A stretch of 64,000 nt of DNA from Mesorhizobium sp. 1M-11. Its GTDB lineage: Bacteria; Pseudomonadota; Alphaproteobacteria; Rhizobiales; Rhizobiaceae. Below are positions 895-38,884 of this stretch, piece after piece. Under the pieces are notes generated by a model that did no database searches, was not told where the DNA came from, and saw only the letters and a program-made list of their open reading frames with translations. Numbering within the stretch: the first letter of the stretch is position 1; every line of letters starts with the position of its first letter. Location: contig NZ_LJSD01000056.1 in assembly GCF_001303895.1 (NCBI RefSeq), positions 62,001-126,000 on the forward strand. The letters run 5' to 3'. Made by a program: the position numbers and the translations under genes.

Positions 895-2508
895 TCAGTC
901 TTTCAGCGCGCCACCCACAATTACACCGGTACCGAAGATCAGAGCTTTGGATAGGAAATCACTGTTGTCTCTTGGAGGCGGTGCGTCGCGGACCTCGATA
1001 TCGCTGTTGCGTCTCCTTTGGGCAACTTGCTGCTTCTTGCGCGGCTTTTGCTGTGCAACTGGTTTGAGTGTGCGAGTCTTCTGCACGACCTGCCTCTTGG
1101 GTGGTGCCGCACGGGCCTGATCGGCTGTGTTCCTGGCGCGTATCCTATCCAATATCGGGTCGGTCTGGATTGCCAGGAATGTCAGTTGCTCGCGCGTCAG
1201 ATAGGTGGTCCGCGGCAGACCGTTCTTTCCCTGCCAGACGCCGATTGCCTGGCGAGTCTTCGGGCCGAAGTTACCGTCGGCGAGGCCGAGCTCGTTGCCC
1301 AACGCTTCCATGCGCAATTGCAGATCAATGCGGCCGTTGCGGTCCAGCCCGATCGCGCTCTCAGTCTCCTCAGTGCCGAGTGTCTGCTTCATCTCGTCGG
1401 TGATACCGATGGTGGTGCGCACGGCTGAACCCGGATTGCTGTTTGCTCCGTTGGCGTCCAGCGAAGCCATCTGCTTGTCGCCGGCCTTCGGGTCCTTCAA
1501 TTGATCGATGTTGAGCTTCGCGACCGTCGCGAAGCGGCCATTCGGAAACTGTTCGAGATAAGCTTCGTAGAACGGGACGGCATTCTTCTTCGATGCCTCA
1601 TCCCAAAGGCGCTGCTCGATTTCCCAGGATAGCGGCGCGCCGACGGCTGGAGTGGCGGCCGTCGTCTTGGCTGGGGCTATCACGGGCTCGGTTGTTTGTG
1701 CGGCCGCCTGCGCGATAGGCTTGCCCAGGAATACCTCGCGTCCCAGCGAAGCATTGTGCCACGGCCGCTGCCGGCCTTGTGTCGTTTCCGTAACTTCACC
1801 GCGGACGCGTGTCAGTGCGCTCTGAATTTCGACGCCGGGTTGGGTCAGGTGTTTGGCGAGCGCCAGCGAATAGGGACTGTCGACACCGTTGCCATCGAAA
1901 GCGATGGCACCGGGATCCGTGGCATAAGCGATCAGCACGCCGCCGGTGCCGACACCGTCGGCCTTTGCATCGACCGGAGCAAGGCCAGCGCCCAGCGAGC
2001 GGCTTTTCGGCAATGCTGCGGCCAGCGTACGTGCCAACGGGTTGTCGCGGCAGGCGTCAAGGATGATGATGCCAACCGCGGGATCGGACGGCAACGCCGC
2101 CATGAATTCGTCAATCTGAACGGTACGGGTCTTGAGATAGGCGGGAGACGTCAGCTCTGCATCGACGGGGATGAGATAATTCTTGCCGTCGACCTGCATA
2201 CCATGACCGGCGTAGAAAATAACGGCAAGGTCCGCGTTGTAGGATTCCTCGGTGAATTTGCCGATCAGGCTGTGCATGCCGGCATTGTCCTGGTCGACAC
2301 CTTCGATGACCTCGAAGCCGGCATTGCGCAGTGTGGACGCAATGAGGCGGGCATCGTTCGCCGGATTGGGCAATGCAACGGCATTGACATATTTGCTGTT
2401 GCCGATGACCAGCGCGACACGCTTGGCATCGGGTGCGGCAGCCTGGACGCCAAAGGTGGCCAGGGCGACGAGAATGAATACAGTCAACAGGACGGCGAAC
2501 GCTTTCAT
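895..2508 (-). CDS. Exported caspase-like (peptidase C14) protein
   Basis: A 537-residue protein with a signal peptide (about residues 1-24) followed by a caspase p20-type domain (about 28-265). The catalytic dyad is intact: His102 in 'FYAGHGMQ' and Cys153 in 'LDACRDNP'. After a Pro/Ala/Thr-rich linker, residues about 390-450 look like a small peptidoglycan-binding-type helical domain ('GNFGPKTRQAIGVWQ'). The tail is rich in Lys, Arg and Gln and ends in a hydrophobic glycine-rich stretch ('FGTGVIVGGAL'). It is the last gene of the left T6SS block, with its own 231-bp upstream region. Bacterial caspase-like proteases (metacaspase/orthocaspase group) cleave proteins; the substrate here is unknown. 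The role in T6SS is inferred only from location. Confidence 0.85.
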   Translation of the reverse strand: MKAFAVLLTVFILVALATFGVQAAAPDAKRVALVIGNSKYVNAVALPNPANDARLIASTLRNAGFEVIEGVDQDNAGMHSLIGKFTEESYNADLAVIFYAGHGMQVDGKNYLIPVDAELTSPAYLKTRTVQIDEFMAALPSDPAVGIIILDACRDNPLARTLAAALPKSRSLGAGLAPVDAKADGVGTGGVLIAYATDPGAIAFDGNGVDSPYSLALAKHLTQPGVEIQSALTRVRGEVTETTQGRQRPWHNASLGREVFLGKPIAQAAAQTTEPVIAPAKTTAATPAVGAPLSWEIEQRLWDEASKKNAVPFYEAYLEQFPNGRFATVAKLNIDQLKDPKAGDKQMASLDANGANSNPGSAVRTTIGITDEMKQTLGTEETESAIGLDRNGRIDLQLRMEALGNELGLADGNFGPKTRQAIGVWQGKNGLPRTTYLTREQLTFLAIQTDPILDRIRARNTADQARAAPPKRQVVQKTRTLKPVAQQKPRKKQQVAQRRRNSDIEVRDAPPPRDNSDFLSKALIFGTGVIVGGALKD

Positions 2509-2607
2509 GGATCAGCCCTCCACCCGTAGGGGCGCGTAATTGATGTCTGTGCATGCTCAATTGCGTGAGCGACAAAGTCGCTTCTGCCAAAAATGGCTCT
2601 GGGCGTA

Positions 2608-2623
2608 TGTGATCCCGGTCACA
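2608..2623. promoter_or_regulatory. Perfect CRP-like operator (TGTGA-N6-TCACA)
   Basis: TGTGA-TCCCGG-TCACA matches both half-sites of the CRP consensus exactly. It lies in the 231-bp gap between the M23 peptidase gene and the caspase gene, with its centre about 107 bases upstream of the caspase start codon. It is the best of five such boxes in the T6SS locus. Which CRP/FNR-family protein binds it cannot be told from this window. Confidence 0.6.
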
Positions 2624-2739
2624 CTCTCGGCTCGCGGGCGCCTAATAAAACCTCTGCAAAGAGGTCTTCAGTATACCATTCAGCGACCCGAAAACCAATC
2701 GACTTGGCGAGCGTGTTGATCTCGCAACGCGGGATTTGG

Positions 2740-5154
2740 CTAACCTCGTTCAAGCGGGTTTTGGATCGAGCCAAGCAACGCTGTTATTGCCTGCTTGTAT
2801 TTTTCAAACTCCGGCGATGTTTGACGAATTTGCGTTGTCGTCGGCTGGCTCCTACCGGCTGCCACACGTGTTACCTTCTGTCCCATCTTGCGCTCAGCCC
2901 AGTCGATGACGTAGCCGGCTGTCTTGCCGGTGAGAAACGGATTGGCCTGGATTACAGCCGATCCGAGTACCGCGCTCAACTGGGACGCCCCCGGCGCCGC
3001 CAATACTTGATGCGCCCCTTCCATGCCAAGAAAGTGACAGAGGTAGAGCCGTCCAGCGGTGATCTGGTGCCCGCGCCCGCGCAGATAGGCCTCGCCTTCG
3101 CGTGCCAGGTTGCGCACCATCTCACGCGAGAGCGTGGCATCGTAGCGAAGCGCGAGCAGGTCAGCGGTCGACAGCGTTCTGGCCAGATCAGGGCGATAGG
3201 TGTTCATCATCCGGATCCAGGTCCTTGTGATGAACTGGCCAGCGCCGGTTGCAGACGAATTCGGGTTCTTGGCGCGTGCGCTGCCGCCGCTCTCTACATG
3301 GACGATCCGGTCGGTCAGCGTCTCCACAGCAACATCGGATGAACTGCCGAAATTGCTGGTGGCAACCGTGGTAACCGTCCCAAGAGAATTGATCGCCTCG
3401 CCGTTCTGATAAAGCTCGAAGTGAAGATGCGGGCCCGTCGAAAGCCCGGTGGTTCCTACATAGCCGATGACGTCGCCGGCCTTCACCTTTGTGCCGATGC
3501 CGCTTGCGATAGCGAATTTCTGCATGTGGGCATAACGCGTCTCGCGCCCGTTGGCATGGGCGATCTTCACCAGATTGCCATAGCCGCCACCGTCGCCCTG
3601 GAAGGTGATTTCGCCGTCGAATGCCGCGACGATCGGTGTGCCGACCGGAGCGGCCCAGTCGGTCCCCTTATGGATTCGAACCGTACCGAGGATCGGATGC
3701 TTGCGTGGGCCGAAGGTCGAGGTCATCACGCCGCTCACGGGCGTGACCATGCCGTTGACCACGGTCAGGGAATGAACTTCGTCGTTGCCCGTGACGCATG
3801 CATATTGGCCGTCGCTCTGTTGGAATACGAAACAGTCCAGGTTCTTCTCGGCACCTGAGACACCGACATAAAGAACCCTTCCGGAATGCTCGTCCTGGCC
3901 GCGCGGCGTCTGCGAGTAGATCAGCATCAGGCGCTGGTCCTCGCTGGCAAAGGCATCCAGATCCTGCCCGCGCGACAGATACATGATCGCCTCGCCGATA
4001 ACGCTTGTCGGAACCTTGTTGCGCGCGGCCGTCGAGTAGATCGCGTCGAGCAGACGATATTGCCGCTTGGGGCCGCCTTGATCGGAGGGGCCGGAATAGT
4101 TGAAGAGGTCGTCGCTGACCCACGGGTCGACGCCCGATACGAAAGCGCCCGCCGTGCTGCGTGTCAACGTGCCGACATAGACATTCCTGGCGTAGACAGA
4201 AACCTGCATGAGCGACATTGTCGTCTTTTCACGGTTCGGCCGGAATCCGCGTAGCGCGACGACAAAGCCGGGCTCAAGTCCGTCGCGGTTGAAGAGAGTC
4301 TTCAGCGCCTCGCCTGCCAGTTTCGCGTCATCCGCGGAGAAATGCGCGTCGAGCGCCACGCTATCGAGGCTGCGGGCGTTGAATATCCTAACGAACGTGT
4401 CCTCGGTTGCCTCGAAGCGCTGATATTCGCTGGTGACTGTCGCAACCGTGGTGGTGTTGGCGATAGCGGTTTTCTTGAACGCCGGCAGGGCTGCCTCGCC
4501 CTGGTCGATGGTCTCCCCCCAGCCGGCTTCAGGATCGTCCACATCGCCCCCGGGGCCTTGAGCCGAAGCTGCGCCATCGTCTGCTGCAGGTTGGAGGTCG
4601 TTTTCCAGGTCGCCTTGCTGATCGGCAGGCCCGGGTGGCGCCGGCGGATCCGGGTGTTGATCGGTGGCAGCCGGTGCCGAAGTCCTTGGAGCCGCTTGTC
4701 GCTGCGCCTGGAAGAATGCGAAGTCCTCCTGTGTCGACGGGATCGTGGTCATGAATCTTTCGCCGACGCTCAGCATCACGTCGGAAAGAATCTCGATCTG
4801 CGGAGATACTCCGTAACTGTCGAGCTCGGCCGGGCGCGGGATCTCGCGGCCTTTCGTTGCCGTGTCGGCATCTGGTGCGAGCGTGATCCACATCGGATCA
4901 CCGGCGAGGTCGATGATCGCTGGCACATAAACCCGCGCATCGGGTGGCATGTCTTCCATGCCTTCGACGGGATGCAACTCCTCATCTTCGTCACCGAACG
5001 ACCAATAGTCCTTGGTGAGATAAAAGCCGGTGGCGATTGAGACGAGGGCGAGCGCCGCAAGGCCGCCGAAGATGCTCCGCCAAAGTCTGCGCCGGCGCTC
5101 GTTCAGGCGTGCCTGCTTCTTCCGCCTGAAGCTCGTGTCGATCCTGTGCGTCAC
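2740..5154 (-). CDS. Membrane-anchored M23 endopeptidase / lytic transglycosylase
   Basis: An 804-residue protein with one transmembrane segment near residues 20-40 after a basic N-terminus. A long Pro/Ala/Asp-rich linker follows, then an M23 (LytM) domain and a C-terminal lytic transglycosylase-like domain. The M23 metal ligands are present: His495 and Asp499 in 'HKGTDW', and the HLH motif at 576-578. The second domain shows 'VESGG..A.N..S.ATGAGQF' with Glu621 as candidate catalytic acid, the SLT family pattern. The frame is open from 5484, but that part reads as nonsense antisense to the upstream gene. GTG at 5154 gives a 4-base overlap (GTGA) with the DUF1036 gene and a sensible N-terminus. 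It probably cuts both peptide and glycan bonds of the cell wall, perhaps to let the T6SS through; that role is inferred. Confidence 0.85.
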   Translation of the reverse strand: MTHRIDTSFRRKKQARLNERRRRLWRSIFGGLAALALVSIATGFYLTKDYWSFGDEDEELHPVEGMEDMPPDARVYVPAIIDLAGDPMWITLAPDADTATKGREIPRPAELDSYGVSPQIEILSDVMLSVGERFMTTIPSTQEDFAFFQAQRQAAPRTSAPAATDQHPDPPAPPGPADQQGDLENDLQPAADDGAASAQGPGGDVDDPEAGWGETIDQGEAALPAFKKTAIANTTTVATVTSEYQRFEATEDTFVRIFNARSLDSVALDAHFSADDAKLAGEALKTLFNRDGLEPGFVVALRGFRPNREKTTMSLMQVSVYARNVYVGTLTRSTAGAFVSGVDPWVSDDLFNYSGPSDQGGPKRQYRLLDAIYSTAARNKVPTSVIGEAIMYLSRGQDLDAFASEDQRLMLIYSQTPRGQDEHSGRVLYVGVSGAEKNLDCFVFQQSDGQYACVTGNDEVHSLTVVNGMVTPVSGVMTSTFGPRKHPILGTVRIHKGTDWAAPVGTPIVAAFDGEITFQGDGGGYGNLVKIAHANGRETRYAHMQKFAIASGIGTKVKAGDVIGYVGTTGLSTGPHLHFELYQNGEAINSLGTVTTVATSNFGSSSDVAVETLTDRIVHVESGGSARAKNPNSSATGAGQFITRTWIRMMNTYRPDLARTLSTADLLALRYDATLSREMVRNLAREGEAYLRGRGHQITAGRLYLCHFLGMEGAHQVLAAPGASQLSAVLGSAVIQANPFLTGKTAGYVIDWAERKMGQKVTRVAAGRSQPTTTQIRQTSPEFEKYKQAITALLGSIQNPLERG

Positions 5155-5654
5155 GGGCTGTTTCCGGTCAGGAAATACGTCCAGCGCGCCTGCTCGAGCG
5201 TATCGACTTCGACAAAATGTGCTGGGATATGGCCGCGCTGCCAGCACTCTTCGATGCCGCGTATCGAGAAGCGGTGGCGGTCGATGCACATTTCGACCGA
5301 TCCGTTGAGGATCGCGTGGCCGAAGACATCCGTCGCATAGAGATAGATGTAACGGTTGACCAATTCCTCGCGGATGACGTTTACGCACTGATTGGCGCCG
5401 ATGGTCCACCAGCCATCGGTCTGGTCGGCGTTGTCGACCTTCTGTCCCACAGCGAGATTGACGACGTCCAGCGTCTGGTTGCACACCGTGAATTCTGCGC
5501 GGGCGCGGTTGATCGACAGGACCGACAGCAGCATTGCGCCGACCAGCGTGGCGACCGCAATGCGGCCGGAGACCTCAGGCCATATTCGAAACCAGCCACG
5601 CCGCTTGCGTGATGGTGGCTGGGACAAACGAGGGCAGCGGCGGTCCATCGGCAT
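5151..5654 (-). CDS. DUF1036 family protein
   Basis: A 167-residue protein with a hydrophobic export or anchor segment at about residues 31-52 ('GRIAVATLVGAMLLSVLSI') after a basic N-terminus. A DUF1036 domain follows with the typical 'FTVCNQT', 'GWWTI', 'C..V' and 'YLYA.D' blocks. DUF1036 proteins are common in alphaproteobacteria and have no assigned biochemical role that I know of. It sits between PpkA (6 bases upstream) and the M23 peptidase (4-base overlap), so the three are translationally coupled and it probably acts in the same envelope step. Confidence 0.8.
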   Translation of the reverse strand: MPMDRRCPRLSQPPSRKRRGWFRIWPEVSGRIAVATLVGAMLLSVLSINRARAEFTVCNQTLDVVNLAVGQKVDNADQTDGWWTIGANQCVNVIREELVNRYIYLYATDVFGHAILNGSVEMCIDRHRFSIRGIEECWQRGHIPAHFVEVDTLEQARWTYFLTGNSP

Positions 5655-5660: not shown

Positions 5661-7886
5661 CTATCCGCCAAGTCGAAAATATTTGGCGGTCGCGGAAAAT
5701 TGCGAACCGTCAGCTTCGATCTCCCTGAGAATCCTGGGCAACAACTCCGAGGCCGGCGTCGGTCTCGCAAACATTGCAGCCTGGATGTCCCGCGGCCCGG
5801 TGATCACGAGTATGATCTGCGGCACCGCCTTGCCGGCCGCTTTGTCAGTGGTGCCAAGACCGATCGGGATACTGAACGCGGCCTTGTCGGTTTGTGCGAC
5901 CATGCGGTCGTCGAGGTTGAACGCAATCCCCTTGTGGTCGATCAGCATCACGTTCGAGACAAGCCCGCCACCCGTAACCAGCGTGCCGCTTATCGCCGAG
6001 CCATCCGGCACCGATATGCTGTCGAGGGTGAGTTGCGGCCGTTCGGCGCTATTGCGATCGAAATACCGCAGGAAGCCGGTCAACTCGCATTGTGGCTGGG
6101 TGATGAGCCGAACGCCAATCTCCGGCTCAAGATGGAACCTCGACCGGAAATCACCGAGCATCCGCTCGAACGGCTGCACAGCCGTTCCGAAGCCTTCAAT
6201 GGCTGGCGCACCATTGGTCGCCGATGTCAGCGACGCGTAGAAACAGTCTCCGCCGCTGAAGTCGCGCACCCAAGAAGCGGGCTGTACGACTACGTCGCTC
6301 CCCTTGGTCGACGGCCTCTCTGGCTTGGGCAGATTGACCGCGACGTCGTCGTTTCCCTGTGGCTTGTTGGCCGGCGGGGGTGGAGGGGGCGTTTCCCGCT
6401 GCACCGGTTCCTGGCTTTCGGCGGAGGCCGGCTCATTCGCCTTCGGCGATTTGGGGAGTTTGTCGTCGACGTTCGATATGTTGGGCTCGGTTGCCTTCGG
6501 CTTGGTATCCGGAGTCGGCTTGTTGTCGGTTTCTGCCTGGCTCGTCTCGGGCGCATTGGCCGCGGGTGACCCGGTGGCTGGCTGATCCGAATTCCCCGTC
6601 GGAGGTTGCGCAGGCTGTGTTTCGACTGGCTGCGAGCCTTGTGTCCGGTTGTTGCTGGCGATCTTCTCTGGCCGAGACGCAGGGGGCGCTTCAGCGGTTG
6701 GGTTCGGACCGGATGGGTCTGCCTTTTCCGGCAGGGGCGACAGGACACCGCTGAAATAAAGACCTGCAGTGGCTAAGAGGATCAGTGCCACTGCGCCGCC
6801 GGCAATCAATGGCCTCCGTGAAGGGGGTAGTGGTGGGGCCGAGGTCGGCGGGCTGGACGAAGCCGTTGCTGGTGCGGGTTGCGACAGATGCGCTGGCCGC
6901 ACGTGCTGAACGAAGTGCTGTTCGCCAGGAGGCGGAGGCTGCTGAGTGTCGGGCGGCGTCGTCCCCCCGGAGCGCTGCAACCCCGAGCGTTCGCGCGCAG
7001 TGAATGATGGCGGCGTTGTCGCGTCGAGGTCGTCGTCCCGTGTCATCCTGGCGATTTCTGCCATGCTGGCCGGCCGGTCGCGTGGATCCGGTTGCAGCAT
7101 CGCTTCCAGGAGGTCGCGGAAATCGGGGTCGATATCCGACAAGTCGGGCACGGTCCGGCGCTTTTCGATGACCTCGAATTGCGAGCCGCTCATATCCAGC
7201 GACTTCCCACGCAGCGCTGCGGCCAGCACCAGCCCAAGGCTGTAGATATCGGATTGCTCGCTGACTTCGCCGCCATAGAGCCCAAGCTGCTCCGGCGAAA
7301 CATAATTGTATTTTCCGGCGAACTTCCCGCCGATCAGTGTCTCTCCTCCGACGGTAGCGGAACGCGCTATGCCGAAATCGATGATCTTGGCGCGCTCGAC
7401 CCGACCGCCTGGCAAGATGATGTTGTCGGGTGACAGGTCACGATGAATGGCGCCAGCCTGATGCACTGCGCTCAGCCCCGACGCGAGGCGATGGCAAAGC
7501 CGGCGAACGTCTGGCAAAGGCATGGCGCCGAGCCGGATGATGTCGAACAACGACGGGCCATCCACGAACTCCATCGCGAGATAAGGCCGGCCAATCCCTG
7601 GATCGATGGTGAAGACGTGGTAGCGGACGACGGCGTCATGCGACAGATGATTGAGGATCGACGCTTCCTTGCGGAACAGGGACAGTATGGTCTGATCGCG
7701 GGCGAATTCGGGCAGCACGATCTTGATCGCGACGTGATCGCCGGTCTGGATGTTGTGGCCGCGATAGACCTCGCCCATGCCACCGGATGCGATCCTCTCG
7801 TCGAGCTCATAGATGGTGCTGAGTTGCGTACCCACACCCGCATAGGCGACGTTCGCCGATAGCCGTGTCTTGTCGTCGTCGCTCAT
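5661..7886 (-). CDS. ppkA: T6SS serine/threonine kinase PpkA
   Basis: A 741-residue transmembrane protein kinase. The kinase domain (about residues 26-285) has the glycine loop 'GGMGEV', invariant Lys55 ('VAIK'), the catalytic loop 'HRDLSPDN' (His148-Arg-Asp150), DFG at 170-172 and 'SPEQ' at 197. A proline-rich juxtamembrane region precedes one membrane helix at about 360-381. The extracytoplasmic part has a long Pro/Thr/Glu-rich linker and a C-terminal globular domain with cysteines in 'GGDCFYA' and 'QPQCELT'. ATG at 7886 overlaps the phosphatase stop codon by 4 bases. In other T6SSs PpkA phosphorylates an FHA protein to trigger firing, opposed by PppA. Here the first FHA gene (14129-15193) is the likely target because its phosphothreonine pocket looks intact. 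Confidence 0.9.
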   Translation of the reverse strand: MSDDDKTRLSANVAYAGVGTQLSTIYELDERIASGGMGEVYRGHNIQTGDHVAIKIVLPEFARDQTILSLFRKEASILNHLSHDAVVRYHVFTIDPGIGRPYLAMEFVDGPSLFDIIRLGAMPLPDVRRLCHRLASGLSAVHQAGAIHRDLSPDNIILPGGRVERAKIIDFGIARSATVGGETLIGGKFAGKYNYVSPEQLGLYGGEVSEQSDIYSLGLVLAAALRGKSLDMSGSQFEVIEKRRTVPDLSDIDPDFRDLLEAMLQPDPRDRPASMAEIARMTRDDDLDATTPPSFTARERSGLQRSGGTTPPDTQQPPPPGEQHFVQHVRPAHLSQPAPATASSSPPTSAPPLPPSRRPLIAGGAVALILLATAGLYFSGVLSPLPEKADPSGPNPTAEAPPASRPEKIASNNRTQGSQPVETQPAQPPTGNSDQPATGSPAANAPETSQAETDNKPTPDTKPKATEPNISNVDDKLPKSPKANEPASAESQEPVQRETPPPPPPANKPQGNDDVAVNLPKPERPSTKGSDVVVQPASWVRDFSGGDCFYASLTSATNGAPAIEGFGTAVQPFERMLGDFRSRFHLEPEIGVRLITQPQCELTGFLRYFDRNSAERPQLTLDSISVPDGSAISGTLVTGGGLVSNVMLIDHKGIAFNLDDRMVAQTDKAAFSIPIGLGTTDKAAGKAVPQIILVITGPRDIQAAMFARPTPASELLPRILREIEADGSQFSATAKYFRLGG

Positions 7887-8725
7887 CTTGCGAGCCCCTC
7901 CGCTCCGGAGCGATCCGAATTCAACTTCCCGTTGCGCTCGTCGCCCATCTTCACAAGCACAATGGTCACATTGTCGGTTCCGCCACGTGCCAGCACCGTC
8001 TCCAGCAGGCTCCGGCAGGCCACCTGCAGTTCCGCAGATTTGACTGCCGCCTCGATCTCGGCGTCGCTGACATGCGCGGTCAGCCCGTCGGTGTTCAGAA
8101 CAAAAACATCGCCTGGCATCAACACGCCCTGCTGGAAATCGATCTTGAGCTGATCGCTGACGCCGACCGCATGCGTGATCACGTTGCGGCGAGGCCATGT
8201 GAGGGCTTCTTCCGCGCTGATCACGCCACGGTCGAGCAGCTCCTGAACCTCCGAATGATCCTTCGAGACCTGGGTGATCAAACCGTTGCGAACCAGATAG
8301 ATGCGGCTGTCGCCGGCCCACAGGCAGGCGAAGCGGCCGTCCATAGCGAGCAGGGCTGCAAAGGTGGAGCCTATCGTGATGCCGCGAGAGCGCGAGATGT
8401 TGCGGATCTCGGTATTGGCGCGGTTGAGCCGGTCCTCGAAGCGAGCACGAAGATCTGGCGCCGAGCTCGGAATGCCGATCGTTGCCAGATGGTCGACGAT
8501 GCTGGCGGAGGCGAGTTCTCCAGCCTCATGCCCGCCCATGCCGTCGGCTACCACCCAAAGGCCGGTCTGCGGTTCGACGAGGTAATTGTCCTCGTTGTGA
8601 TCGCGCACACAGCCCTTGTGACTCACCCCGAAGCTCTCGACGGGAAGGGCGACAGTGCTCAAATTGCCACCAAACGCTTCGCGAGCGTCCTCTGTGACGA
8701 ACGATGGGCCGCGTACACATGCCAT
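7883..8725 (-). CDS. pppA: T6SS PP2C-type phosphatase PppA
   Basis: A 280-residue PPM/PP2C family phosphatase. All metal-binding aspartate motifs are present: 'VRDHNEDNY', 'VVADGMGGHE', 'LWAGDSRIY', 'LNTDGLT' and 'GGTDNVTI'. It removes phosphate from Ser/Thr, and in T6SSs with a threonine phosphorylation pathway it reverses PpkA action on the FHA protein. Its stop overlaps the ppkA start (ATGA) and it begins 72 bases after tssM1, so it belongs to the same transcript. Cytosolic. Confidence 0.92.
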   Translation of the reverse strand: MACVRGPSFVTEDAREAFGGNLSTVALPVESFGVSHKGCVRDHNEDNYLVEPQTGLWVVADGMGGHEAGELASASIVDHLATIGIPSSAPDLRARFEDRLNRANTEIRNISRSRGITIGSTFAALLAMDGRFACLWAGDSRIYLVRNGLITQVSKDHSEVQELLDRGVISAEEALTWPRRNVITHAVGVSDQLKIDFQQGVLMPGDVFVLNTDGLTAHVSDAEIEAAVKSAELQVACRSLLETVLARGGTDNVTIVLVKMGDERNGKLNSDRSGAEGLAR

Positions 8726-8797: not shown

Positions 8798-11700
8798 TCA
8801 GAAAGCCTTGGGACAGCTGAAACCGGACAACGCCGGCAGCAGGAAGGGATTGGCTCCAGAGCCCGCCTGGATCGTGTATGCAACATCGCGTCCCCCGATG
8901 ACGAAGCGAGCTTCGGTGTTGCCGCCATTGCTGGTGATGGTGGCTTTGTCGAGCAGCCGTTTCAGCGCCCACGGGCCGTCGAATTTCAGCGCGGACTCGC
9001 GGCCGGGCATGTCCGGCAACAGGCTGAGGCTGGCAGAGGCGGAGGCGGTGCCATTCGGCCAGGTCACCGTGCTTGGAACGTTCCCGGCCTGACTGCTTTG
9101 TACGGTCTGACCGTCAATAGTCAGGACTGCGCTGTCGGCGTCGCCGTTGAGCGAGAAGGGCGTGAAGGTGATGTTGACTGACGGCGCCGAGCCACCGGAA
9201 GGAAAGAAGGCGTTGCGGATCTCCGCAGCGGACTGGAACGCCTTCAAGGTCGATTTGGCGAGGCCTCGGCTGGATCGTACGTCCTGCTTCCAGGTCCACT
9301 CCTGGCCCGTCATGTCGATCAGTGGCGCAAGGTTCTGCGCGAAGAAGCGATCCATCACTCCGCCAGGCGCGAACAGCATGGCGAAATCCACCATCGGGAT
9401 GTCTTCCGTGCCGTCGCCGGCGAAGGGATAGTGACCATTGACCGCCTCCTCACAGGCGCGCGTGACGGATTGATCGAGGTTCTGGTTGAGGTTGACTACC
9501 GAGGTCTCGGCGACATCGCCCTCAAACTCGTCCGCCGCTGTGGTCACCATGCGCGCGAGCGGCTTGGGAAGGCGCGAGACATTGGCGCGTAGCGTCGAGA
9601 TCTGCAGCCGAAGGTTCGCGTTGACGCGTTCGGTTTGCGAGGGAACATCGGCCGAGAGCTTCAAGCTCTGGAAAATATCGCGGAAATTCTGGGTCAGTGC
9701 ATCGAGAGGTCGGCGCCCGGCAGTACCGCTGACCAGCGTCTGGAAAGACCGGAACTGTGCCTCTACGCTTGCGCCGGCATTTTGTGCAAGGGCCGAGCTT
9801 GTGCCGGCACGGCTTTGCGACTTGCCCCTGGCGATCTGCAAGCCGATGCGGGCCAAACCCTTGGCCATACCGGCCAGATCGTCCTGCGCAATGCCGGTCT
9901 CGCCCTCGGAGATGGTGTCGTCGTTCGTCAGCGCGGTTTCCTCGGCTATTGCGGTAAACAGCTGGTCAAGTGGGGAGTCCGGCGCTGCGACGGCTGAGAG
10001 CGCGATGTATTGCGGTTTGTCCTTCAGCATCGGCTTGAACTTCAGCTGATCGAGCGCGCCTTTCCAACTGGTGGCGAACTCCTTGCCGTAGCGGTCAACG
10101 AGTTCAGAGCCGAGCTTGGGCAGGTCCTGGTCGATGCCGCCCTGTTCGCCGCCGCCACCCAGTACCCACTGCTCGTCGACAAGCATCTGCGCGATGCGTG
10201 AAAGCTGTGGCAGGAAGAAGCGATTGAACCCGACGTGGGTGTAAAGACCTGGAACATGAAGGTCGGCCAGGTCGCCGCCATCCATGCGTTCGAACAAAAG
10301 CTGGGCCTGAGGGCCTGCACCGGCCGCGATGGAGAAATCCCTCAACCTTGCACCGTAGACCGCCGACTTGATTAGCGCCGACGCGCGATCAGCCAGGCTC
10401 ATTCGACCGAGCGAGCGCTGTGCAGCCTCGATCAGTGGCTGGTTGAGTTCGAAGAGCGGATCATAGGCGTCATCGAGCACAAGCATGGCACGCAGATGCT
10501 TTTCGATCTGAGCGCGGCCTTCGCGGTTGTTTTCTCCTGGATAACGATTTTCTTCCCAGTCCTGCTTCATCCATGAGACGATCAACTCGTCATCGACTTT
10601 CGGCGCCTTGCCGCCCAGCATCAGGTAGATCTTCAGCGGCTGGTAGAGCGTAGCCGGATCGGACATTCTAGTCTGGATCGTCCGCTCTGCCTGAACCAGG
10701 AGGCGGGAGCGGAAGGTCCGCTCAAGCGCCTGCCGATAGGCGGTCCTTGAAGCCGATGAAAGTCTCTCCCGCGGGCTGAGTCCGAAGGTTTCCTCGATTG
10801 GCTTGCCTTGGTTGCCGCTTTCGAAACCGGTCGGCAGGTTGCGCAACTGGTCAAGCGGCCCGATGACGTTTTCCAGGTCGACATCGGTCACGGTCGTGCT
10901 CTTGAGCAGGGAGTCCGCGCTGTCACGATATTGTGCCATCGCCTGTCTGGTTGAAGCGATCAACGACCTGTTGGCGAAGAAGCTGAGGCCCATCACGCCG
11001 AGAGCTGCCACAGCCGCCAGCGCGATCGCCGCAAGACCACCAAATCTGGCCAGCCTGGCGCGCCGTTCGGCGACCCTGTTGAAGGAGACCCAGCCGGATT
11101 CCGGGAAGATCACCTTGGTCAGCAGATCGTGCAGGAAGAAGCTTTTTCCAGTCCCGGAAAGGTGTGGCTGTGACGTGCTGCCGAAACCGCGTCCGATCGC
11201 GCCCAGCACCTGATCGAACGGTGTTCCCTCCTGAGTGCCGGACGAGAAATAGAGCCCACGCAGGCTGACATTCGCCTGCGGTCTGGAGGCATCGAACAGG
11301 CCGCCGATGAAATGCGTGATCCGGCTTCTGAGTGCACCGAACTGAGCCGGAAAGCCGAAGATGGCAATCCGCGCAACCGGATCGGTCTCCTCCTGCAGTC
11401 GATCGACGACCTCTTCCCCCAGGCGCTTGACCAATGCGTCGAATTCGGCGGGTGCCTCGCCGGCCATGTTCCTGGTGCGCTCAGTGGTCTGGAATGTAGC
11501 GCCCCACACCTTACGCCTGCGCATCTCGTCGGAATCGCCGAAATAATCCATGAAACCGGAGACCAGGTCCGCCTTGGTGAAAAGCAGATAGACCGGAAAC
11601 TGGATCTTCAGCGTTTCGTAGAGCTCGTGCAGGCGGCCCCTTATTTCAGTGACATGCGTGTCGAGTTGCCGGTCGTCGAGGCCGATGATGTCGGCGAGGC

Positions 11701-12337
11701 TGATGGCGAGGATGACGCCGTTGATCGGTTGCCTGGTGCGGTATTTCTTCAGCAATTCGAGGAAGGCAAGCCAGTTCGCTTTGTCGCGTGCAGGATCCGA
11801 CTCGAATGTCGTGTAGCGACCGGCCGTGTCTATCAGGACCGCCTCGTCGGTGAACCACCAGTCGCAGGATCGCGTACCACCAACACCCGCTACAGGCTGG
11901 GCATGGCCGGAACCGGCCAGCGGAAATTTCAGCCCGGAATTGACCAGTGCCGTCGTCTTGCCCGCGCCGGGCGGACCGATGACGATGTACCAAGGGATAT
12001 CATAGAGGAAATTGCGCTTGCCGGTTGTCCGCTTCAACGTTGCAACGGCTTCACTCATGCGCGCTTCGAGCGCCTGCGCGTCGTCGTTCTGTTCGTCGCT
12101 GCGCACGATGGCTGTCTCAAGCGCTCGTTGCGCCTTGCGCCTTCGCCAGAAACGGATGCCGTAAAACAGCGCGAGCACAGCGATGGCCACTCCGATGAGC
12201 GTCGCTCGAAGCCAGACGGAACCGAGTGGGCGGCTGTCGGCGAAGCCGACCAGCGGTCCGGCAAACCATATGGCGGCCGAGAAGCCGGTGAGCGCGAGAA
12301 CGCTGAATATCCGCAGCATCCAGCGCATCAGTTCCAT
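8798..12337 (-). CDS. tssM: T6SS inner-membrane protein TssM, first copy (IcmF/ImpL)
   Basis: An 1179-residue IcmF-family protein. It has two membrane helices near the N-terminus (about 10-30 and 45-63), a cytoplasmic NTPase-like domain with an intact Walker A (GPPGAGKT, 121-128), a third helix near residue 430-450 and a large periplasmic part ending in '..FSCPKAF'. TssM spans the inner membrane with TssL and contacts TssJ to form the membrane complex. A second full-length copy lies at 24505-28047; the two are clearly paralogous ('WYIVIGPPGAGKT' against 'WYVIVGPPATGKT') but well diverged. It begins 16 bases after tssL1, and its operon partners are the phosphorylation genes rather than the sheath genes. 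Confidence 0.93.
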   Translation of the reverse strand: MELMRWMLRIFSVLALTGFSAAIWFAGPLVGFADSRPLGSVWLRATLIGVAIAVLALFYGIRFWRRRKAQRALETAIVRSDEQNDDAQALEARMSEAVATLKRTTGKRNFLYDIPWYIVIGPPGAGKTTALVNSGLKFPLAGSGHAQPVAGVGGTRSCDWWFTDEAVLIDTAGRYTTFESDPARDKANWLAFLELLKKYRTRQPINGVILAISLADIIGLDDRQLDTHVTEIRGRLHELYETLKIQFPVYLLFTKADLVSGFMDYFGDSDEMRRRKVWGATFQTTERTRNMAGEAPAEFDALVKRLGEEVVDRLQEETDPVARIAIFGFPAQFGALRSRITHFIGGLFDASRPQANVSLRGLYFSSGTQEGTPFDQVLGAIGRGFGSTSQPHLSGTGKSFFLHDLLTKVIFPESGWVSFNRVAERRARLARFGGLAAIALAAVAALGVMGLSFFANRSLIASTRQAMAQYRDSADSLLKSTTVTDVDLENVIGPLDQLRNLPTGFESGNQGKPIEETFGLSPRERLSSASRTAYRQALERTFRSRLLVQAERTIQTRMSDPATLYQPLKIYLMLGGKAPKVDDELIVSWMKQDWEENRYPGENNREGRAQIEKHLRAMLVLDDAYDPLFELNQPLIEAAQRSLGRMSLADRASALIKSAVYGARLRDFSIAAGAGPQAQLLFERMDGGDLADLHVPGLYTHVGFNRFFLPQLSRIAQMLVDEQWVLGGGGEQGGIDQDLPKLGSELVDRYGKEFATSWKGALDQLKFKPMLKDKPQYIALSAVAAPDSPLDQLFTAIAEETALTNDDTISEGETGIAQDDLAGMAKGLARIGLQIARGKSQSRAGTSSALAQNAGASVEAQFRSFQTLVSGTAGRRPLDALTQNFRDIFQSLKLSADVPSQTERVNANLRLQISTLRANVSRLPKPLARMVTTAADEFEGDVAETSVVNLNQNLDQSVTRACEEAVNGHYPFAGDGTEDIPMVDFAMLFAPGGVMDRFFAQNLAPLIDMTGQEWTWKQDVRSSRGLAKSTLKAFQSAAEIRNAFFPSGGSAPSVNITFTPFSLNGDADSAVLTIDGQTVQSSQAGNVPSTVTWPNGTASASASLSLLPDMPGRESALKFDGPWALKRLLDKATITSNGGNTEARFVIGGRDVAYTIQAGSGANPFLLPALSGFSCPKAF

Positions 12338-12353
12338 TCTCCGGCGCGCCCGC

Positions 12354-13850
12354 TCACAACGTCTCCTCCTTCTGGATCATCACTTCGACACGGCGGTTCT
12401 TGGCGCGGCCGTCCGGCATCGCATTGTCGGCAATCGGTTCATCTTCGCCCTTGCCGTCGGCACTCAGCCTCGAAGGGTCTTTCACCAGTTTGGCCAGCGT
12501 CGACTGGACCGCTCTCGCGCGGGCAACCGAAAGGTCGAAATTCGATTTGAATGTGCTCGATTTCTTCGGCTTCACAGTGTCGGTGTGACCGACGATCTTG
12601 ATGGGCCCGGGCTCAGCATTGAGCGTCGTGGCAATATCCGCGGCAACAGGTTGGAACTGTGCCTTCAGTTCCGCCTGGCCTGACGCGAACAACAGCTGAT
12701 TGCTGATCTCCACGACGATGAAGTCGCCCTTCGTGCGGACACTTACCCCGCCAGCGGCGATCTCCTTGGCAAGCGCTGCGCGGATACGGTCGATCTGGGT
12801 GGTGGCGGTGGGTTGCGGCCGGTTGGCGCGTGTCGCTTCGACGGCCTTCGCCACGCTGGCGCGCTCGATCGTGACCGGCGCCGAAGGGTTGAGCGCCAGC
12901 AATTCCTTGGCAGCCGCGTCGCCTTCATCGGTGATCAGTATCCGCAGCCCAAAAAATACCGCTGTCACCAGTGCAATCGCTGCCGCTGCAATCGCCCAGA
13001 GCGGAAGCATGGCTCCTTGCTTCGGCTGTGTTGCAGCCATGCCCTGCCACCGGGGAGAAATGTCGTCGGCTCCACGTGCTTTGAAATAGCGAAGCGTGTC
13101 GTAGACATCGCATCGAACGCGTTCGAGGGTTTCCCGTTCTTTCGCCAGCCCCCGATATTGGCCCTCGAAGCCCAGCGAAAGGCAGGCGTGCATCAATTCG
13201 AGCAGATCGTAATGCGCTTCAGGTTTGGCGAGGATTTTATTCAGCGCTTCGTAGAAGCCGGTCCCCTGGGGTTGAGTGTGGAAGAACTGCGCCGTCAGGC
13301 TGTGTTGGCTCCAGCCACTTTCTCTTGGCCATGGCAGGTTGCCGACGAGATCGTCTGTGGTTTCGCAAAGGGCAAATTTCGCGATCCGCGCATCATCCTC
13401 CTCGACGCCGGCTTTCGTCATAGTACGATCAAATGTCTCGATCGCGCTTGCGATGTACTCTGCCAACGATGAGGCTTTTCGGTCCAGCGGCATCAGCCGC
13501 AGTTGACCGAGCAACATCAATAAGGGAGCCGCAGCGGCGACGATCTGGTTTGCGCTTCCGTACTTGATGCGGTCTGCTGCGGAGAGAAGGATGTCCTGCT
13601 GCAGTGTCGAAGGCGCTGCAGCTAGACCTGGATCAGAGCCTTGAAAGACTACGGTTCCAGAGGACCATCCGGTCGGCATCCGTTTGTCGATGCGTGTATC
13701 GAACACCGTCGGTTCTCGGGCGGCTAGTGGAGCGTGCCCCACTCCTTGCGGCTCTCTATTTTCGGTAGCTGCAACGGACGGTTGCTTTTGCCGTGGCGCA
13801 CGGATGATTGTCCGGTCCGCAGGGGCCGAGGGATCATCCGTCGAGCTCAT
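12354..13850 (-). CDS. tssL: T6SS TssL with OmpA domain, first copy (DotU/ImpK)
   Basis: A 498-residue protein with a Pro/Ala-rich N-terminal extension, a DotU/TssL cytoplasmic helical domain ('PLLMLLGQLRLM', 'CLSLGFEGQYRG'), one membrane helix at about 280-300 and a periplasmic OmpA-like domain ('VGHTDTVKPKKSS', 'NRRVEVMIQ'). TssL partners with TssM, and the OmpA extension binds peptidoglycan. A second TssL with the same architecture is at 28047-29369. A 278-bp gap precedes this gene, so it may have its own promoter. Confidence 0.93.
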   Translation of the reverse strand: MSSTDDPSAPADRTIIRAPRQKQPSVAATENREPQGVGHAPLAAREPTVFDTRIDKRMPTGWSSGTVVFQGSDPGLAAAPSTLQQDILLSAADRIKYGSANQIVAAAAPLLMLLGQLRLMPLDRKASSLAEYIASAIETFDRTMTKAGVEEDDARIAKFALCETTDDLVGNLPWPRESGWSQHSLTAQFFHTQPQGTGFYEALNKILAKPEAHYDLLELMHACLSLGFEGQYRGLAKERETLERVRCDVYDTLRYFKARGADDISPRWQGMAATQPKQGAMLPLWAIAAAAIALVTAVFFGLRILITDEGDAAAKELLALNPSAPVTIERASVAKAVEATRANRPQPTATTQIDRIRAALAKEIAAGGVSVRTKGDFIVVEISNQLLFASGQAELKAQFQPVAADIATTLNAEPGPIKIVGHTDTVKPKKSSTFKSNFDLSVARARAVQSTLAKLVKDPSRLSADGKGEDEPIADNAMPDGRAKNRRVEVMIQKEETL

Positions 13851-14075
13851 CGGAGCGCCGTGATCAAAGTGCGGCTGACTTCTAAAGGGCCTGCTTTACA
13901 CCTTCCAGGCCGGAACTTGGGACGGATCGAAAAGCGCTTTTTGCTGAAACATGACATCGCTGCACGCCCCAAGCCATGCCGCGTTGCCCGGCAGGCAAGC
14001 TCCCAACCATCATTCTAATCGCACAGGAGGCCGATTGAAATCGGAAAGCAGGATGATCGAAGGGACAGTGCGTTC

Positions 14076-14091
14076 TATGAAACCCGTCACA
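14076..14091. promoter_or_regulatory. CRP-like operator (TATGA-N6-TCACA)
   Basis: TATGA-AACCCG-TCACA matches the TGTGA-N6-TCACA consensus at 9 of 10 positions. It lies in the 278-bp gap between fha1 and tssL1, about 230 bases upstream of the tssL1 start. It is the weakest-placed of the five boxes because of the distance to the gene. I see no other gene or clear structure in this gap. Confidence 0.4.
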
Positions 14092-14128
14092 GACAGCCCA
14101 ATTATGCCGCCGACATGGCTGTGCTTGG

Positions 14129-15193
14129 CTATTTCTGCTTGCCGGCCTTGGCGTAAGCTTCGGCGAAATAGGCGAGAAAGACGTCCAGGACGCCGTTTTC
14201 GTGCTTTTCCTCCATGGTGCGCCAGGTGGCGACCAATGCGTCCCAAGCCTGGCTCTTCTTTGACGAGAAAGATGCCGGTGGCAGTTTTCTGGCGATCGTC
14301 TCTGGCGACAGATCATCGAGCAGCCTGAAAAGCGCGGCTTGCATCGCGGCGTAAGTCGCAATTTCGTGGGTCTTCAGGTCCTGGAACGCGTCTTCGACAC
14401 TGTGCTTGGCATCGAGATAGCCGGCCCTGCGCTTGGCAAACATGATCTCCAATATGTCATCGGTGCCCGGCACGAATTTCAGCGGATTGTTGTCCTCAGC
14501 GCCGATCATCGTACGATGGGGGGTCTTGGCGAGTACCTTGGCGGCGGCGCGCGCCTTGAGCAGCAGCGACAATTGCTCGACGGAGGTTCTCAGTATCGCG
14601 CCGATCTCTGCTGCGACTTCGTGCGGATCGCGCGATTGCAGCAGGTCAGGAGCGATGCCAGCTGCAGTCGCGATATCTCGCAGGATCTCCATCGTACCCG
14701 GCGGCTGTTGAACCGGCGCGGCCGCGCCGGACTGCAGCAATGAGGACGTCGATATCGGTGCTGCTGGAGCGGGGTGTCGCTCCAGGGACCTAAGTGATGG
14801 CATGTCGGGTTCTATCGGGCGGCCCGTCGGCGACAGTTCGCGTTGCGTCGTTCCGGTTGCTTGACCGATGATGACGCGCCCTTCATCGGTCGAAACCGCA
14901 ATGACATAGCGGCCGATAAGCAGCCTGTCGCCGTTGGTCAGTCTATGAGGGGTGGTCATGCGCTGTCTGGAGCCATTGACGAAGGTTCCGTTGCGCGAGA
15001 CGTCGTAGAGCCAGAATGCACCTGCCTGGAAATCGACTTCACAATGACGGCCCGAGATGAACTTGTCGGGATCCGATAACGTCCAGTCACAATTCTCCCG
15101 GCCGATATCGAAGCCGCAATCACGGGCAGCATAGCTTGTAGCGACCCCCGCTGGCAGCCCATCGAGATTGCTGATCTGGAGCGAGATGAACAT
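14129..15193 (-). CDS. T6SS FHA-domain protein, first copy (TagH/ImpI-like)
   Basis: A 354-residue protein with an N-terminal FHA domain (about residues 20-105) and a C-terminal T6SS-specific FHA-associated region containing 'NPLKFVPGTDDILEIMF' and 'YAAMQAALFRLLDDL'. The FHA phosphothreonine-binding residues look complete: 'IGREN', 'SGRHCEV' and 'SRNGTFVNG'. Such proteins are the targets and readers of the PpkA/PppA switch in other systems. It heads the left minus-strand block and is divergent from vgrG. A second FHA gene is at 31206-32660. Confidence 0.88.
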   Translation of the reverse strand: MFISLQISNLDGLPAGVATSYAARDCGFDIGRENCDWTLSDPDKFISGRHCEVDFQAGAFWLYDVSRNGTFVNGSRQRMTTPHRLTNGDRLLIGRYVIAVSTDEGRVIIGQATGTTQRELSPTGRPIEPDMPSLRSLERHPAPAAPISTSSLLQSGAAAPVQQPPGTMEILRDIATAAGIAPDLLQSRDPHEVAAEIGAILRTSVEQLSLLLKARAAAKVLAKTPHRTMIGAEDNNPLKFVPGTDDILEIMFAKRRAGYLDAKHSVEDAFQDLKTHEIATYAAMQAALFRLLDDLSPETIARKLPPASFSSKKSQAWDALVATWRTMEEKHENGVLDVFLAYFAEAYAKAGKQK

Positions 15194-23968: not shown

Positions 23969-24523
23969 TCAATTACTTGTATCGGCTGGTCTTCCAATTG
24001 CTGCGAAGATCCGCCCCACGGTTTTTCCCGGTGCCTGTGGGTCGACGTCGAAAATATCCGTGCGCGCGGTCCACATGACGAGATCGTCGATGACCTCGAC
24101 GTCCGGCTCGACAGATGGCGCGGGCAGGGCGGTCAGCGCGGCATCCAGCTGGTCTGGGGTGAGTTCACCCCGTTGCGCGGCGAAAGCAGCGTCCTCGATG
24201 TCTTCGAACCAGGCATCGGCGTAGACAAACTCGAGCGGTGCCTCGGCGAGCCGCGCGATGATGCTCAGCGGGAACTGTCGGCCAATCCGATCGGCGCTAG
24301 GCAACATTATGCCGGTCGAGACACCGAAGGAGGCCGGGCCGGCTAGGAAACGCAGCGCCGTACTGTGGGGCCAGGTGTCCGAGGCCATCAACGGAACGAT
24401 ATGCTGCGCCAGCCAGCGGTCCCAGACGCGCACGAAATCACCTGGCAGCCGGCGGGTCACGAAATCGCCGGTGGCGGGCATCTTGCCATAGAAGCCGGGC
24501 GCGTTCAGATCTGGGGCGGACAT
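23969..24523 (-). CDS. tagF: T6SS-associated protein TagF (ImpM)
   Basis: A 184-residue TagF/ImpM family protein with the family opening 'GFYGKMPATGDFVTRRLP' and 'WPHSTALRFLAGP'. In other systems TagF represses T6SS assembly post-translationally, in some species by acting on the FHA protein. The ATG at 24523 overlaps the tssM2 3' end by 19 bases and has no strong ribosome binding site, which suggests translational coupling. It is the last tss gene of the right block before the cargo module. Confidence 0.88.
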   Translation of the reverse strand: MSAPDLNAPGFYGKMPATGDFVTRRLPGDFVRVWDRWLAQHIVPLMASDTWPHSTALRFLAGPASFGVSTGIMLPSADRIGRQFPLSIIARLAEAPLEFVYADAWFEDIEDAAFAAQRGELTPDQLDAALTALPAPSVEPDVEVIDDLVMWTARTDIFDVDPQAPGKTVGRIFAAIGRPADTSN

Positions 24524-29369: not shown

Positions 29370-29373
29370 GACC

Positions 29374-31202: not shown

Positions 31203-31205
31203 GTC

Positions 31206-38344: not shown

Positions 38345-38884
38345 TTACTCCCCCGCCTTGTCGTCGTCGGACATCGCCTGGCTGGCGATCCTGCTCAGCA
38401 GCGGCTCGTTGTTCAGAAGTTGCGCAATGCGCTTTTCGGCGTCGACGCGGCCGTCCATGAAGCCGAGCAATTCCTCGAGCTGACGACGCATCTTGAGGAT
38501 CTCAGCCAGTTGCGGCACCTGCTCGGCCACTTTGTCAGGAGCGAAATCGCCCATCTTCGAGAAGGTGAGATCGATCGCCAGTTCTTCATCCCGTTCGGCA
38601 CCCTCGGCTTGTGGCAATGTGTTCTTCACACGCGCCTTCACGCGAGGTCCCATGGCCTCCATGAACTTGGGGAAGCGGTTGGCGTCGGTTTCGACGAAGT
38701 TGCGGTCCAGCACCGACTTTGATGCTTCCTTGGTCTGTGAGGCGCCAGAAAGGTCGGCCATCACAGCCATGACGAACGGCAGTTCGATCGTCGTCGGGCT
38801 GCCGTAGGTCTCGACGTCGTAGGCGATTTGCACGCGCGGGGCGCGGTTTCTTTCGATGACCTTAGCTTTGCTCTCTGCTGGCAT
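38345..38884 (-). CDS. tssB: T6SS sheath small subunit TssB
   Basis: A 179-residue TssB (VipA/ImpB) with 'VQIAYDVETYGSPTTIELPF', 'FVMAVMADLSG' and 'DFAPDKVAEQVPQL'. The C-terminal part holds the ClpV-recognised helix in homologues. It lies 5 bases after tssA and 3 bases before tssC. Confidence 0.97.
   Translation of the reverse strand: MPAESKAKVIERNRAPRVQIAYDVETYGSPTTIELPFVMAVMADLSGASQTKEASKSVLDRNFVETDANRFPKFMEAMGPRVKARVKNTLPQAEGAERDEELAIDLTFSKMGDFAPDKVAEQVPQLAEILKMRRQLEELLGFMDGRVDAEKRIAQLLNNEPLLSRIASQAMSDDDKAGE

What the first reader, a model, noticed from the sequence alone, without database searches (positions are those of the whole stretch)
895..2508. Exported caspase-like protease inside a T6SS locus
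The His102/Cys153 dyad is intact, and the protein has a signal peptide, a possible peptidoglycan-binding region and a Lys/Arg/Gln-rich tail. It has the only perfect CRP-like box of the locus in front of it. A periplasmic protease may process secretion components or guard against incoming effectors.
Basis: partly seen in the sequence, partly recalled or inferred. Interest (0 to 1): 0.5.

Follow-up and report, generated by a model that had tools for sequence, protein, structure and literature searches.

The report
Periplasmic caspase beside type VI secretion
A soil bacterium keeps a gene for an exported, caspase-like protein cutter beside its poison-injecting machine, and relatives in several bacterial families do the same more often than chance would give, which suggests an unrecognised protease step linked to this weapon.

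Summary
It lies at the edge of a Mesorhizobium T6SS, after pppA-ppkA-DUF1036-M23. Of 146 genomes of the genus, 78 have this ortholog: all 78 are T6SS+, none of the 21 T6SS- genomes has it. It is no core part: 47 of 125 T6SS+ genomes lack it, and scars plus a tree show repeated loss, although its caspase domain is under strong purifying selection. Two other caspases occur at the same edge; 77 of 78 loci with enough flank carry at least one of the three. Outside the genus, 19 of 59 T6SS+ genomes of the order (12 genera, 8 families) have a caspase within 40 kb of tssB (2.8 expected; relatedness not corrected); in three the same architecture lies beside DUF1036 and ppkA. Best reading: a periplasmic, wall-bound Arg/Lys-specific protease that serves the T6SS as a dispensable accessory; substrate unknown. 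The CRP-like box is real as letters but gives no evidence of CRP control.

The parts
895..2508 (-). exported caspase-like protein, 537 aa (class A: C14 + PG_binding_1 + basic tail + glycine-rich hydrophobic C-end)
2437..2508 (-). probable signal peptide, residues 1-24
   Evidence: hydropathy; cleavage site judged by eye
1732..2424 (-). Peptidase_C14 domain, residues 29-259; His102 at 2203-2205, Cys153 at 2050-2052; acidic pocket residues D52 and D151
1174..1338 (-). PG_binding_1 domain, residues 391-445 (missing in frame in L050-L053 and L058)
964..1173 (-). Lys/Arg/Gln-rich tail, residues 446-515; pLDDT under 50 from residue 468
898..963 (-). glycine-rich hydrophobic C-end, residues 516-537
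2509..2640 (-). conserved block before the gene, holding the CRP-like box at 2608-2623; a similar block precedes the moved copy in L130
220..816 (+). OmpA-domain protein, convergent neighbour, kept where the caspase is lost
2740..5484 (-). M23 peptidase with one hydrophobic stretch near the N-end; the SLT-like C-terminal part is read by eye. Start uncertain
5151..5654 (-). DUF1036 protein, exported or membrane-anchored by hydropathy
5661..8321 (-). PpkA-type Ser/Thr kinase with one hydrophobic stretch (residue 503 on) and a long C-terminal part beyond it; start uncertain
7883..8725 (-). PppA-type PP2C phosphatase
8798..12337 (-). second TssM (IcmF); the other is at 24505-28047
12354..13850 (-). 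second TssL (DotU + OmpA domain); the other is at 28047-29369
14129..15193 (-). second Fha protein; the other is at 31206-32660
38345..38884 (-). TssB, the T6SS marker used in all counts

Best explanation
It is an exported orthocaspase with an intact active site that works in the periplasm as a dispensable accessory of the T6SS, most likely on the periplasmic side of its regulation. Shown by sequence: intact dyad, MALT1-like fold, both acidic pocket residues that in related enzymes hold a basic P1 residue, a wall-binding domain, a basic tail and a hydrophobic glycine-rich end, and linkage of such genes to T6SS loci beyond random placement in several families. Inferred: the protein is exported, tethered between cell wall and membrane, and cuts after Arg/Lys; its targets are extracytoplasmic parts coded beside it (the part of PpkA outside the membrane, DUF1036, M23 hydrolase, OmpA), a periplasmic repressor elsewhere, or its own basic tail. 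Cutting would tune T6SS assembly or firing, as TagR and RtkS tune PpkA from the periplasm and as loss of periplasmic ExoR is proposed to switch on the Agrobacterium T6SS. Several caspases may share the task, so that each single gene can be lost.
For: DUF1036 and M23 genes before the caspase in 57 of 57 Mesorhizobium-type loci. 78 of 78 orthologs in TssB+ genomes, 0 in 21 TssB- (Fisher 1.5e-8); 69 on the tssB contig at 35.0-38.6 kb. Outside the genus 19 of 59 TssB+ genomes (12 genera, 8 families) have a caspase within 40 kb of tssB; 2.8 expected, maximum 13 in 200,000 simulations. Class A beside DUF1036, with ppkA-pppA-tagF-tssM near, in G882, G804, G757. Class B (C14+Sel1): 20 of 24 genomes TssB+, against 48 of the other 373 (p 2e-13), 16 of 24 within 45 kb of tssB. 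Dyad and both Asp in 21 of 21 T6SS-locus caspases compared, of 23 found. dN/dS 0.078 for the C14 domain. 77 of 78 Mesorhizobium loci with enough flank hold at least one of three caspases. Fold: MALT1 Z 24.1 over 210-211 residues. Precedents: RtkS and TagR, ExoR.
Against: 47 of 125 TssB+ Mesorhizobium genomes lack it, with all neighbours kept in 20 of 20 empty loci read in full. 40 of 59 TssB+ genomes elsewhere show no caspase within 40 kb; only three of the linked genes are of the window's own class. Outside the order 1 of 20 TssB+ genomes has one near tssB, though only 6 of the 20 have any. Class A relatives occur with no T6SS gene in the read stretch, three with an ompA gene upstream. A 53-60% paralog in 16 genomes was not seen near tssB. 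'At least one caspase' is not significant (3.2 loci with none expected under independence, 1 seen). No sign of lost cut sites in neighbours. Activity, location and substrate are not shown.
Confidence: 0.5

Rival explanations
1. Guard: the protease destroys or blunts incoming effectors, or repairs the periplasm after attack; it lies with the T6SS because attack and defence go together, but takes no part in the machine.
For: Frequent loss without phylogenetic clustering (16 changes on the tree, shuffled mean 17.9) with purifying selection while present suits a gene useful only in some settings; several caspases per locus.
Against: Neighbours are ppkA, DUF1036 and M23, while the effector-immunity genes of the window lie at 17.8-22 kb; dN/dS 0.078 in the domain shows no arms-race signature.
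Confidence: 0.2
2. General envelope protease (surface turnover, stress) that is locus-neutral; T6SS islands are merely hospitable places for such genes.
For: Caspases of this kind are common in the order (61 of 121 genomes at E<=1e-20) with or without T6SS; class A relatives with ompA and no T6SS gene in the stretch; a paralog elsewhere.
Against: 19 of 59 observed against 2.8 expected; class B strongly tied to TssB+ genomes.
Confidence: 0.2
3. Self-processing membrane-active device: the Arg/Lys-specific caspase cuts its own basic linker and frees the glycine-rich end, which inserts in a membrane (damage, lysis or release from an anchor).
For: Basic tail plus glycine-rich hydrophobic C-end in 10 of 12 C14+PGB genes outside Mesorhizobium against 1 of 18 caspases without PGB; kept in the five in-frame variants that lost PGB.
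Against: Cleavage is unshown; the end may be a plain anchor; apart from the signal peptide the tail is the least conserved part (dN/dS 0.26).
Confidence: 0.1

Closest known systems
Bacterial orthocaspases (Peptidase_C14, p20 type; PMC6426788, passages and section 17 read)
   Same: p20-type domain, HC dyad, two acidic pocket residues
   Different: export-type N-end, PG_binding_1, basic tail and glycine-rich end; linked to T6SS
MALT1 paracaspase (PDB 3uo8, 8v4x)
   Same: closest solved fold, Z 24.1 over 210-211 residues, 21% identity; D52 and D151 fall on MALT1 D365 and D462 (MALT1 numbers recalled, placed on the alignment by hand)
   Different: human signalling protein with Ig domains (recalled)
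TagR/TagQST (Pseudomonas) and RtkS (Serratia), periplasmic inputs to PpkA (PMC6082577, passages read)
   Same: periplasmic proteins that act on the T6SS kinase PpkA; rtkS is noted for its linkage with the phosphorylation genes
   Different: not described as proteases in the passages read; sequence relation not tested
Periplasmic loss of ExoR that derepresses ChvG/ChvI and the T6SS in Agrobacterium (PMC3460628, passages read)
   Same: proteolysis in the periplasm proposed to control a T6SS in the same order; the protease is called unidentified there
   Different: transcriptional route; no caspase is mentioned in the passages read; ExoR was not looked for here
Prokaryotic metacaspases with a peptidoglycan-binding domain (PMC3501461, passages read)
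   Same: caspase plus wall-binding domain (11 sequences there, 1.6%); OmpA domain in 14 metacaspase operons
   Different: no T6SS link in the passages read; the term 'type VI secretion' counts 0
NCBIfam caspase_w_EACC1 (NF047832)
   Same: caspase domain aligns, 37.9 bits
   Different: far below its cut-off of 140

Membership tests
Orthocaspase / Peptidase C14 | caspase domain over the family cut-off | tested here: met
   PF00656 146.2 bits, cut-off 21.4; fold Z 24.1
Orthocaspase / Peptidase C14 | His-Cys dyad | tested here: met
   window. Relatives: His in 58 of 58 and Cys in 57 of 58 rows; L059 and L063 are frameshifted before Cys153, so the aligned Cys of L059 is not meaningful and 56 of 58 are intact
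Orthocaspase / Peptidase C14 | acidic S1 pocket (two Asp) | tested here: met
   D52 and D151 invariant in the 27 rows of A1 and in 23 of 23 rows
Orthocaspase / Peptidase C14 | absence of a p10 domain | not tested
   no p10 model was run
Orthocaspase / Peptidase C14 | cleavage after Arg/Lys | not testable with these tools
   needs an assay
T6SS core component | present in every T6SS of the type | tested here: not met
   78 of 125 TssB+ genomes
T6SS-locus accessory gene | linked to T6SS loci beyond random placement, in several lineages | tested here: met
   relatedness not corrected outside Mesorhizobium
T6SS-locus accessory gene | affects T6SS function | not testable with these tools
   needs mutants
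T6SS effector | no export signal of its own (criterion recalled) | tested here: not met
   strong N-terminal hydrophobic stretch; hydropathy only
EACC1-associated caspase (NF047832) | score over cut-off | tested here: not met
   37.9 against 140 bits

The most novel reading that the evidence does not exclude
T6SSs of Hyphomicrobiales have their own set of periplasmic caspases, in at least two architectures (C14-PGB-glycine-rich end and C14-Sel1), that turn an envelope signal into irreversible cutting of periplasmic regulators of the machine: a caspase switch on a bacterial weapon, with several interchangeable proteases per locus that come and go while the machine stays.
Probability: 0.2. Interest if true: 0.85.

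Novelty: new variant of a known kind. Interest (0 to 1): 0.6.

Why it matters
Bacterial caspase relatives are numerous but few have a known job. A repeated link to T6SS loci gives one group of them a defined place and a testable role, and would add dedicated proteolysis to the known controls of T6SS; in Agrobacterium the protease that removes the T6SS repressor ExoR was called unidentified (PMC3460628, passages). It also supplies a natural experiment: close Mesorhizobium relatives with the same T6SS, with and without each caspase.

Tried and rejected
CRP control: rejected as unsupported. The box pattern is unique in the genome but no better conserved than its flanks, has 2-5 mismatches in 17 of 57 loci, and the 260 bases before 11 paralogs have nothing nearer than 5 mismatches. 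RNA structure in the conserved block: RNAalifold gave -6.6 kcal/mol with covariation term 0, 3 of 16 pairs with a two-sided change; no support. Promoter and terminator scan of 2450-2800: no sigma-70-like site; one terminator-like site, on the other strand, against 0.4 expected.

Cut sites in neighbours: 247 Lys/Arg columns conserved in caspase+ loci, 244 also in caspase- loci; best single difference p 0.048 before correction. No signal.

Gain by transfer instead of loss: synonymous distances of caspase and M23 gene agree (r 0.85), and remnants of the gene lie in the empty sites of L108 (both ends), L103, L111 and L112, weakly L102 and L104; L180 keeps a 70-residue piece and L176 a broken gene. 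L101, L105-L107, L109, L110 and L113-L120 show no useful remnant, so loss is shown for some sites, not all.

Complementarity of the three Mesorhizobium caspases: casp2 against class B p 0.015; class A against either not significant. Not claimed.

Defence system: PADLOC caspase model 25.3 bits, not followed. DUF1036 literature: one paper, on a citrus pathogen's interactome (listing). T6SS protease toxins of the Cpe1 kind are papain-like, not caspases (PMC12136450, passages).

Rows dropped and corrections. One search put L057 and L134 among caspases without PGB; searches show PGB, and the corrected table (10 of 12 against 1 of 18) was tested; one of the 18 (L095) comes from a Mesorhizobium genome, and four of the 12 come from one genome (G024). 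For class B I left out four of the 28 genomes (G090, G733, G734, G776), whose matches cover the caspase domain only and which are TssB-; with them it is 20 of 28 (p 4e-11). Three weak second C14 proteins (L143, L145, L160) fell out by its length filter, and 2 of the 23 linked genes (in G757 and G858) were not read. Of the 47 genomes without the ortholog, 40 loci were read and 7 not; TssB of G163, G166 and G250 scores like another T6SS type, so these three may lack this T6SS. L113 (G206) is an empty locus although G206 keeps a copy 280 kb away. L059 and L176 are one genome (both contigs 128,478 bases), so the 79 rows are 78 loci; 13 further loci had under 7 kb beyond ompA and were left out. Loci with class A came from named genomes that matched the query, those without it were chosen as such: one search is no random sample. 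Labels TssA, TssC, TssE, TssF, TssG, TssK and Hcp for window genes are from recall, not from a family search. RNA families were not searched.

Full report
What is there. The gene at 895-2508(-) codes for 537 residues: a hydrophobic export-type N-end, Peptidase_C14 (29-259), a helical stretch, PG_binding_1 (391-445), a Lys/Arg/Gln-rich tail and a short glycine-rich hydrophobic end. His102 and Cys153 are present. The model is fair in the first half of the caspase domain (block pLDDT 75-92 for residues 31-140), weak in loops, mean 58.9 overall, and under 50 from residue 468. Its best solved neighbours are MALT1 paracaspase structures, Z 24.1, rmsd 2.6-2.8, 210-211 residues, which also lead by sequence (E 4.7e-8). 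D52 and D151 fall on MALT1 D365 and D462 (MALT1 numbers recalled, placed by hand on the alignment). Two Asp residues of the pocket matter for basic substrates in trypanosome metacaspase 2 (PMC6426788, section 17). Specificity for Arg/Lys is therefore predicted, not shown.

Where it is. The genome is a Mesorhizobium by its nearest relatives. The gene ends the chain Fha2-TssL2-TssM2-PppA-PpkA-DUF1036-M23 of a T6SS that also has another set of TssL, TssM and Fha. By hydropathy, DUF1036, the M23 protein and the C-terminal part of PpkA probably lie on the same side of the membrane as the caspase. In 57 of 57 Mesorhizobium-type loci DUF1036 and M23 genes precede the caspase; contig ends hide further genes in some, and in L029 the ompA gene lies between M23 gene and caspase.

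Tie to the T6SS in the genus. Of 146 genomes, 125 have TssB and 78 have the ortholog (71% identity or more); all 78 are TssB+ (Fisher 1.5e-8), 69 with both on one contig 35.0-38.6 kb apart, 8 on other contigs, one 280 kb away. Since the gene lies in the T6SS locus, loss of the locus alone would also give this pattern. A 53-60% paralog occurs in 16 genomes, in 5 on the tssB contig over 1.3 Mb away and in 11 on other contigs; 11 of the 16 were read and show no T6SS gene within the stretch.

Dispensable and often lost. 47 TssB+ genomes lack the ortholog; three of them may have another T6SS type only. I read 20 empty loci in full, 19 from these 47 and that of G206, whose copy has moved: all 20 have VgrG, Fha2, TssL2, TssM2, PppA, PpkA, DUF1036, M23 and OmpA, with only the caspase missing between the last two. 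At 21 more loci of the 47, M23 and ompA genes are again both there, one with a broken caspase gene (L176) and one with a 70-residue piece (L180). Some empty sites hold remnants; L108 keeps half of the upstream box and the end of the gene. On a quick tree of the M23 protein from 78 loci (58 with, two of them broken; 20 without) presence changes 16 times, at least 10 by well-supported branches, about as often as with shuffled labels (17.9; 75 of 500 shuffles as low). While present the gene is under purifying selection: dN/dS 0.078 in the C14 domain, 0.128 PGB, 0.26 tail, 0.162 overall, against 0.109 for M23. Two frames (L059, L063) are broken and five orthologs lack the PGB part in frame but keep tail and end.

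Not one caspase but several. At the same edge of the Mesorhizobium T6SS lie a second caspase behind a YceI-OmpA protein (L001) and, in many genomes though not in this one, a third of about 849 residues with Sel1 repeats (L094). Both have a hydrophobic N-end by eye. Of 78 loci with at least 7 kb beyond ompA, 77 hold at least one of the three; the exception, L182, runs to a contig end. If the three were independent, 3.2 loci with none are expected, so 'at least one' is suggestive only, and the loci are no random sample.

Outside the genus. In 397 genomes of the order, 68 have TssB, 59 of them outside the genus. Of these 59, 40 have a C14 match at E<=1e-15 (180 genes) and 19 have one within 40 kb of tssB (23 genes, 12 genera, 8 families); random placement predicts 2.8 genomes and 200,000 simulations never passed 13. 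The match list was cut at its weak end, so 19 is a lower bound; relatedness and contig ends were not modelled, and four of the 19 are one genus, three another. I read 20 stretches from 18 of the 19 genomes, and G104 separately. In G882, G804 and G757 the linked gene has the window's own architecture (C14, PGB, glycine-rich end) and stands beside DUF1036, with ppkA-pppA-tagF-tssM a few kb away. Ten others share a C-end of the type NPR.DLF or RPRYDLF; of these, four were scanned and have Sel1 repeats (L141, L143, L147, L158). The rest are of other makes. In G104 the listed frame overlaps the end of a TssA-like frame. The Sel1 class has its own link: 20 of 24 genomes with it are TssB+, against 48 of the other 373. 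All 24 C14 genes read have a hydrophobic stretch before the domain, and 21 of 21 compared keep dyad and acidic pocket, although 18.9% of alphaproteobacterial orthocaspases are reported to have a changed dyad (PMC6426788, passage). Outside the order, 6 of 20 TssB+ genomes have a caspase and one has it near tssB (G990).

Architecture without T6SS. Class A genes also occur alone. L057, L088 and L092 have an ompA gene just upstream and no T6SS gene in the read stretch, which for L057 reaches only 1.2 kb upstream; L088 stands beside pilus-type genes (by eye), an FHA and a kinase-like gene. The basic tail plus glycine-rich end marks 10 of 12 C14+PGB genes outside Mesorhizobium and 1 of 18 caspases without PGB (p 2.2e-5), and 55 of 55 complete Mesorhizobium orthologs.

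How it may work. Periplasmic inputs to T6SS phosphorylation are known: TagR in Pseudomonas and RtkS in Serratia act on PpkA from the periplasm, and rtkS was picked for its linkage with the phosphorylation genes (PMC6082577, passages). [quoted passage not shown] A wall-bound Arg/Lys protease coded beside ppkA and DUF1036 fits either place. I propose that it cuts a periplasmic partner or repressor, or frees itself by cutting its basic tail, in answer to an envelope signal. The place is supported by genome statistics, the chemistry by residues and fold; the signal, the substrate and the effect on the T6SS are inference.

Novelty. Ten full-text searches listed no paper that by title or opening lines treats caspases in T6SS loci. 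I judged by the listings and read passages of PMC3501461, PMC6426788, PMC3482391, PMC6082577, PMC12136450 and PMC3460628 only. The library lacks most subscription papers, so this is no proof of novelty. PMC3482391 describes caspase-like peptidases that process exported polymorphic toxins (passages), a different use.

Noticed in passing
window 8798-15193 and 24505-32660: The T6SS has two sets of TssM, TssL and Fha; the second set goes with pppA-ppkA and was present in the 20 loci read in full. Why one T6SS needs two such sets is open.
   Followed up: partly
L001:1432-2640 (left of the window): Second caspase behind a YceI-OmpA fusion; its C-end holds a CxxCH motif (CDNCH), like a haem site.
   Followed up: partly
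L094:13651-16200 and relatives: C14-Sel1 caspase class; most linked members share an NPR.DLF-type C-end; strongly tied to TssB+ genomes.
   Followed up: yes
L088:2697-11162: ompA-caspase pair beside pilus-type genes, an FHA protein and a kinase-like protein, with no T6SS gene in the stretch.
   Followed up: partly
L130:9915-11330: In G206 the caspase stands 280 kb from its T6SS with a similar upstream block and has a run of glycines in place of the usual C-end.
   Followed up: partly
L195:4852-11271: Outside the class, G990 has a 2139-aa frame ending near a caspase domain 17.6 kb from tssB; possibly another kind of protein.
   Followed up: no
L143:12225-13871, L145:6129-7760, L160:13065-14696: Next to the Sel1 caspase a second, divergent C14 protein (about 545 aa; a weak DUF4384 match in the one scanned).
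   Followed up: no
L094:10195-10740; probably also at the left end of the window: DUF6931 gene between ompA and the second caspase (scanned in L094 only).
   Followed up: no
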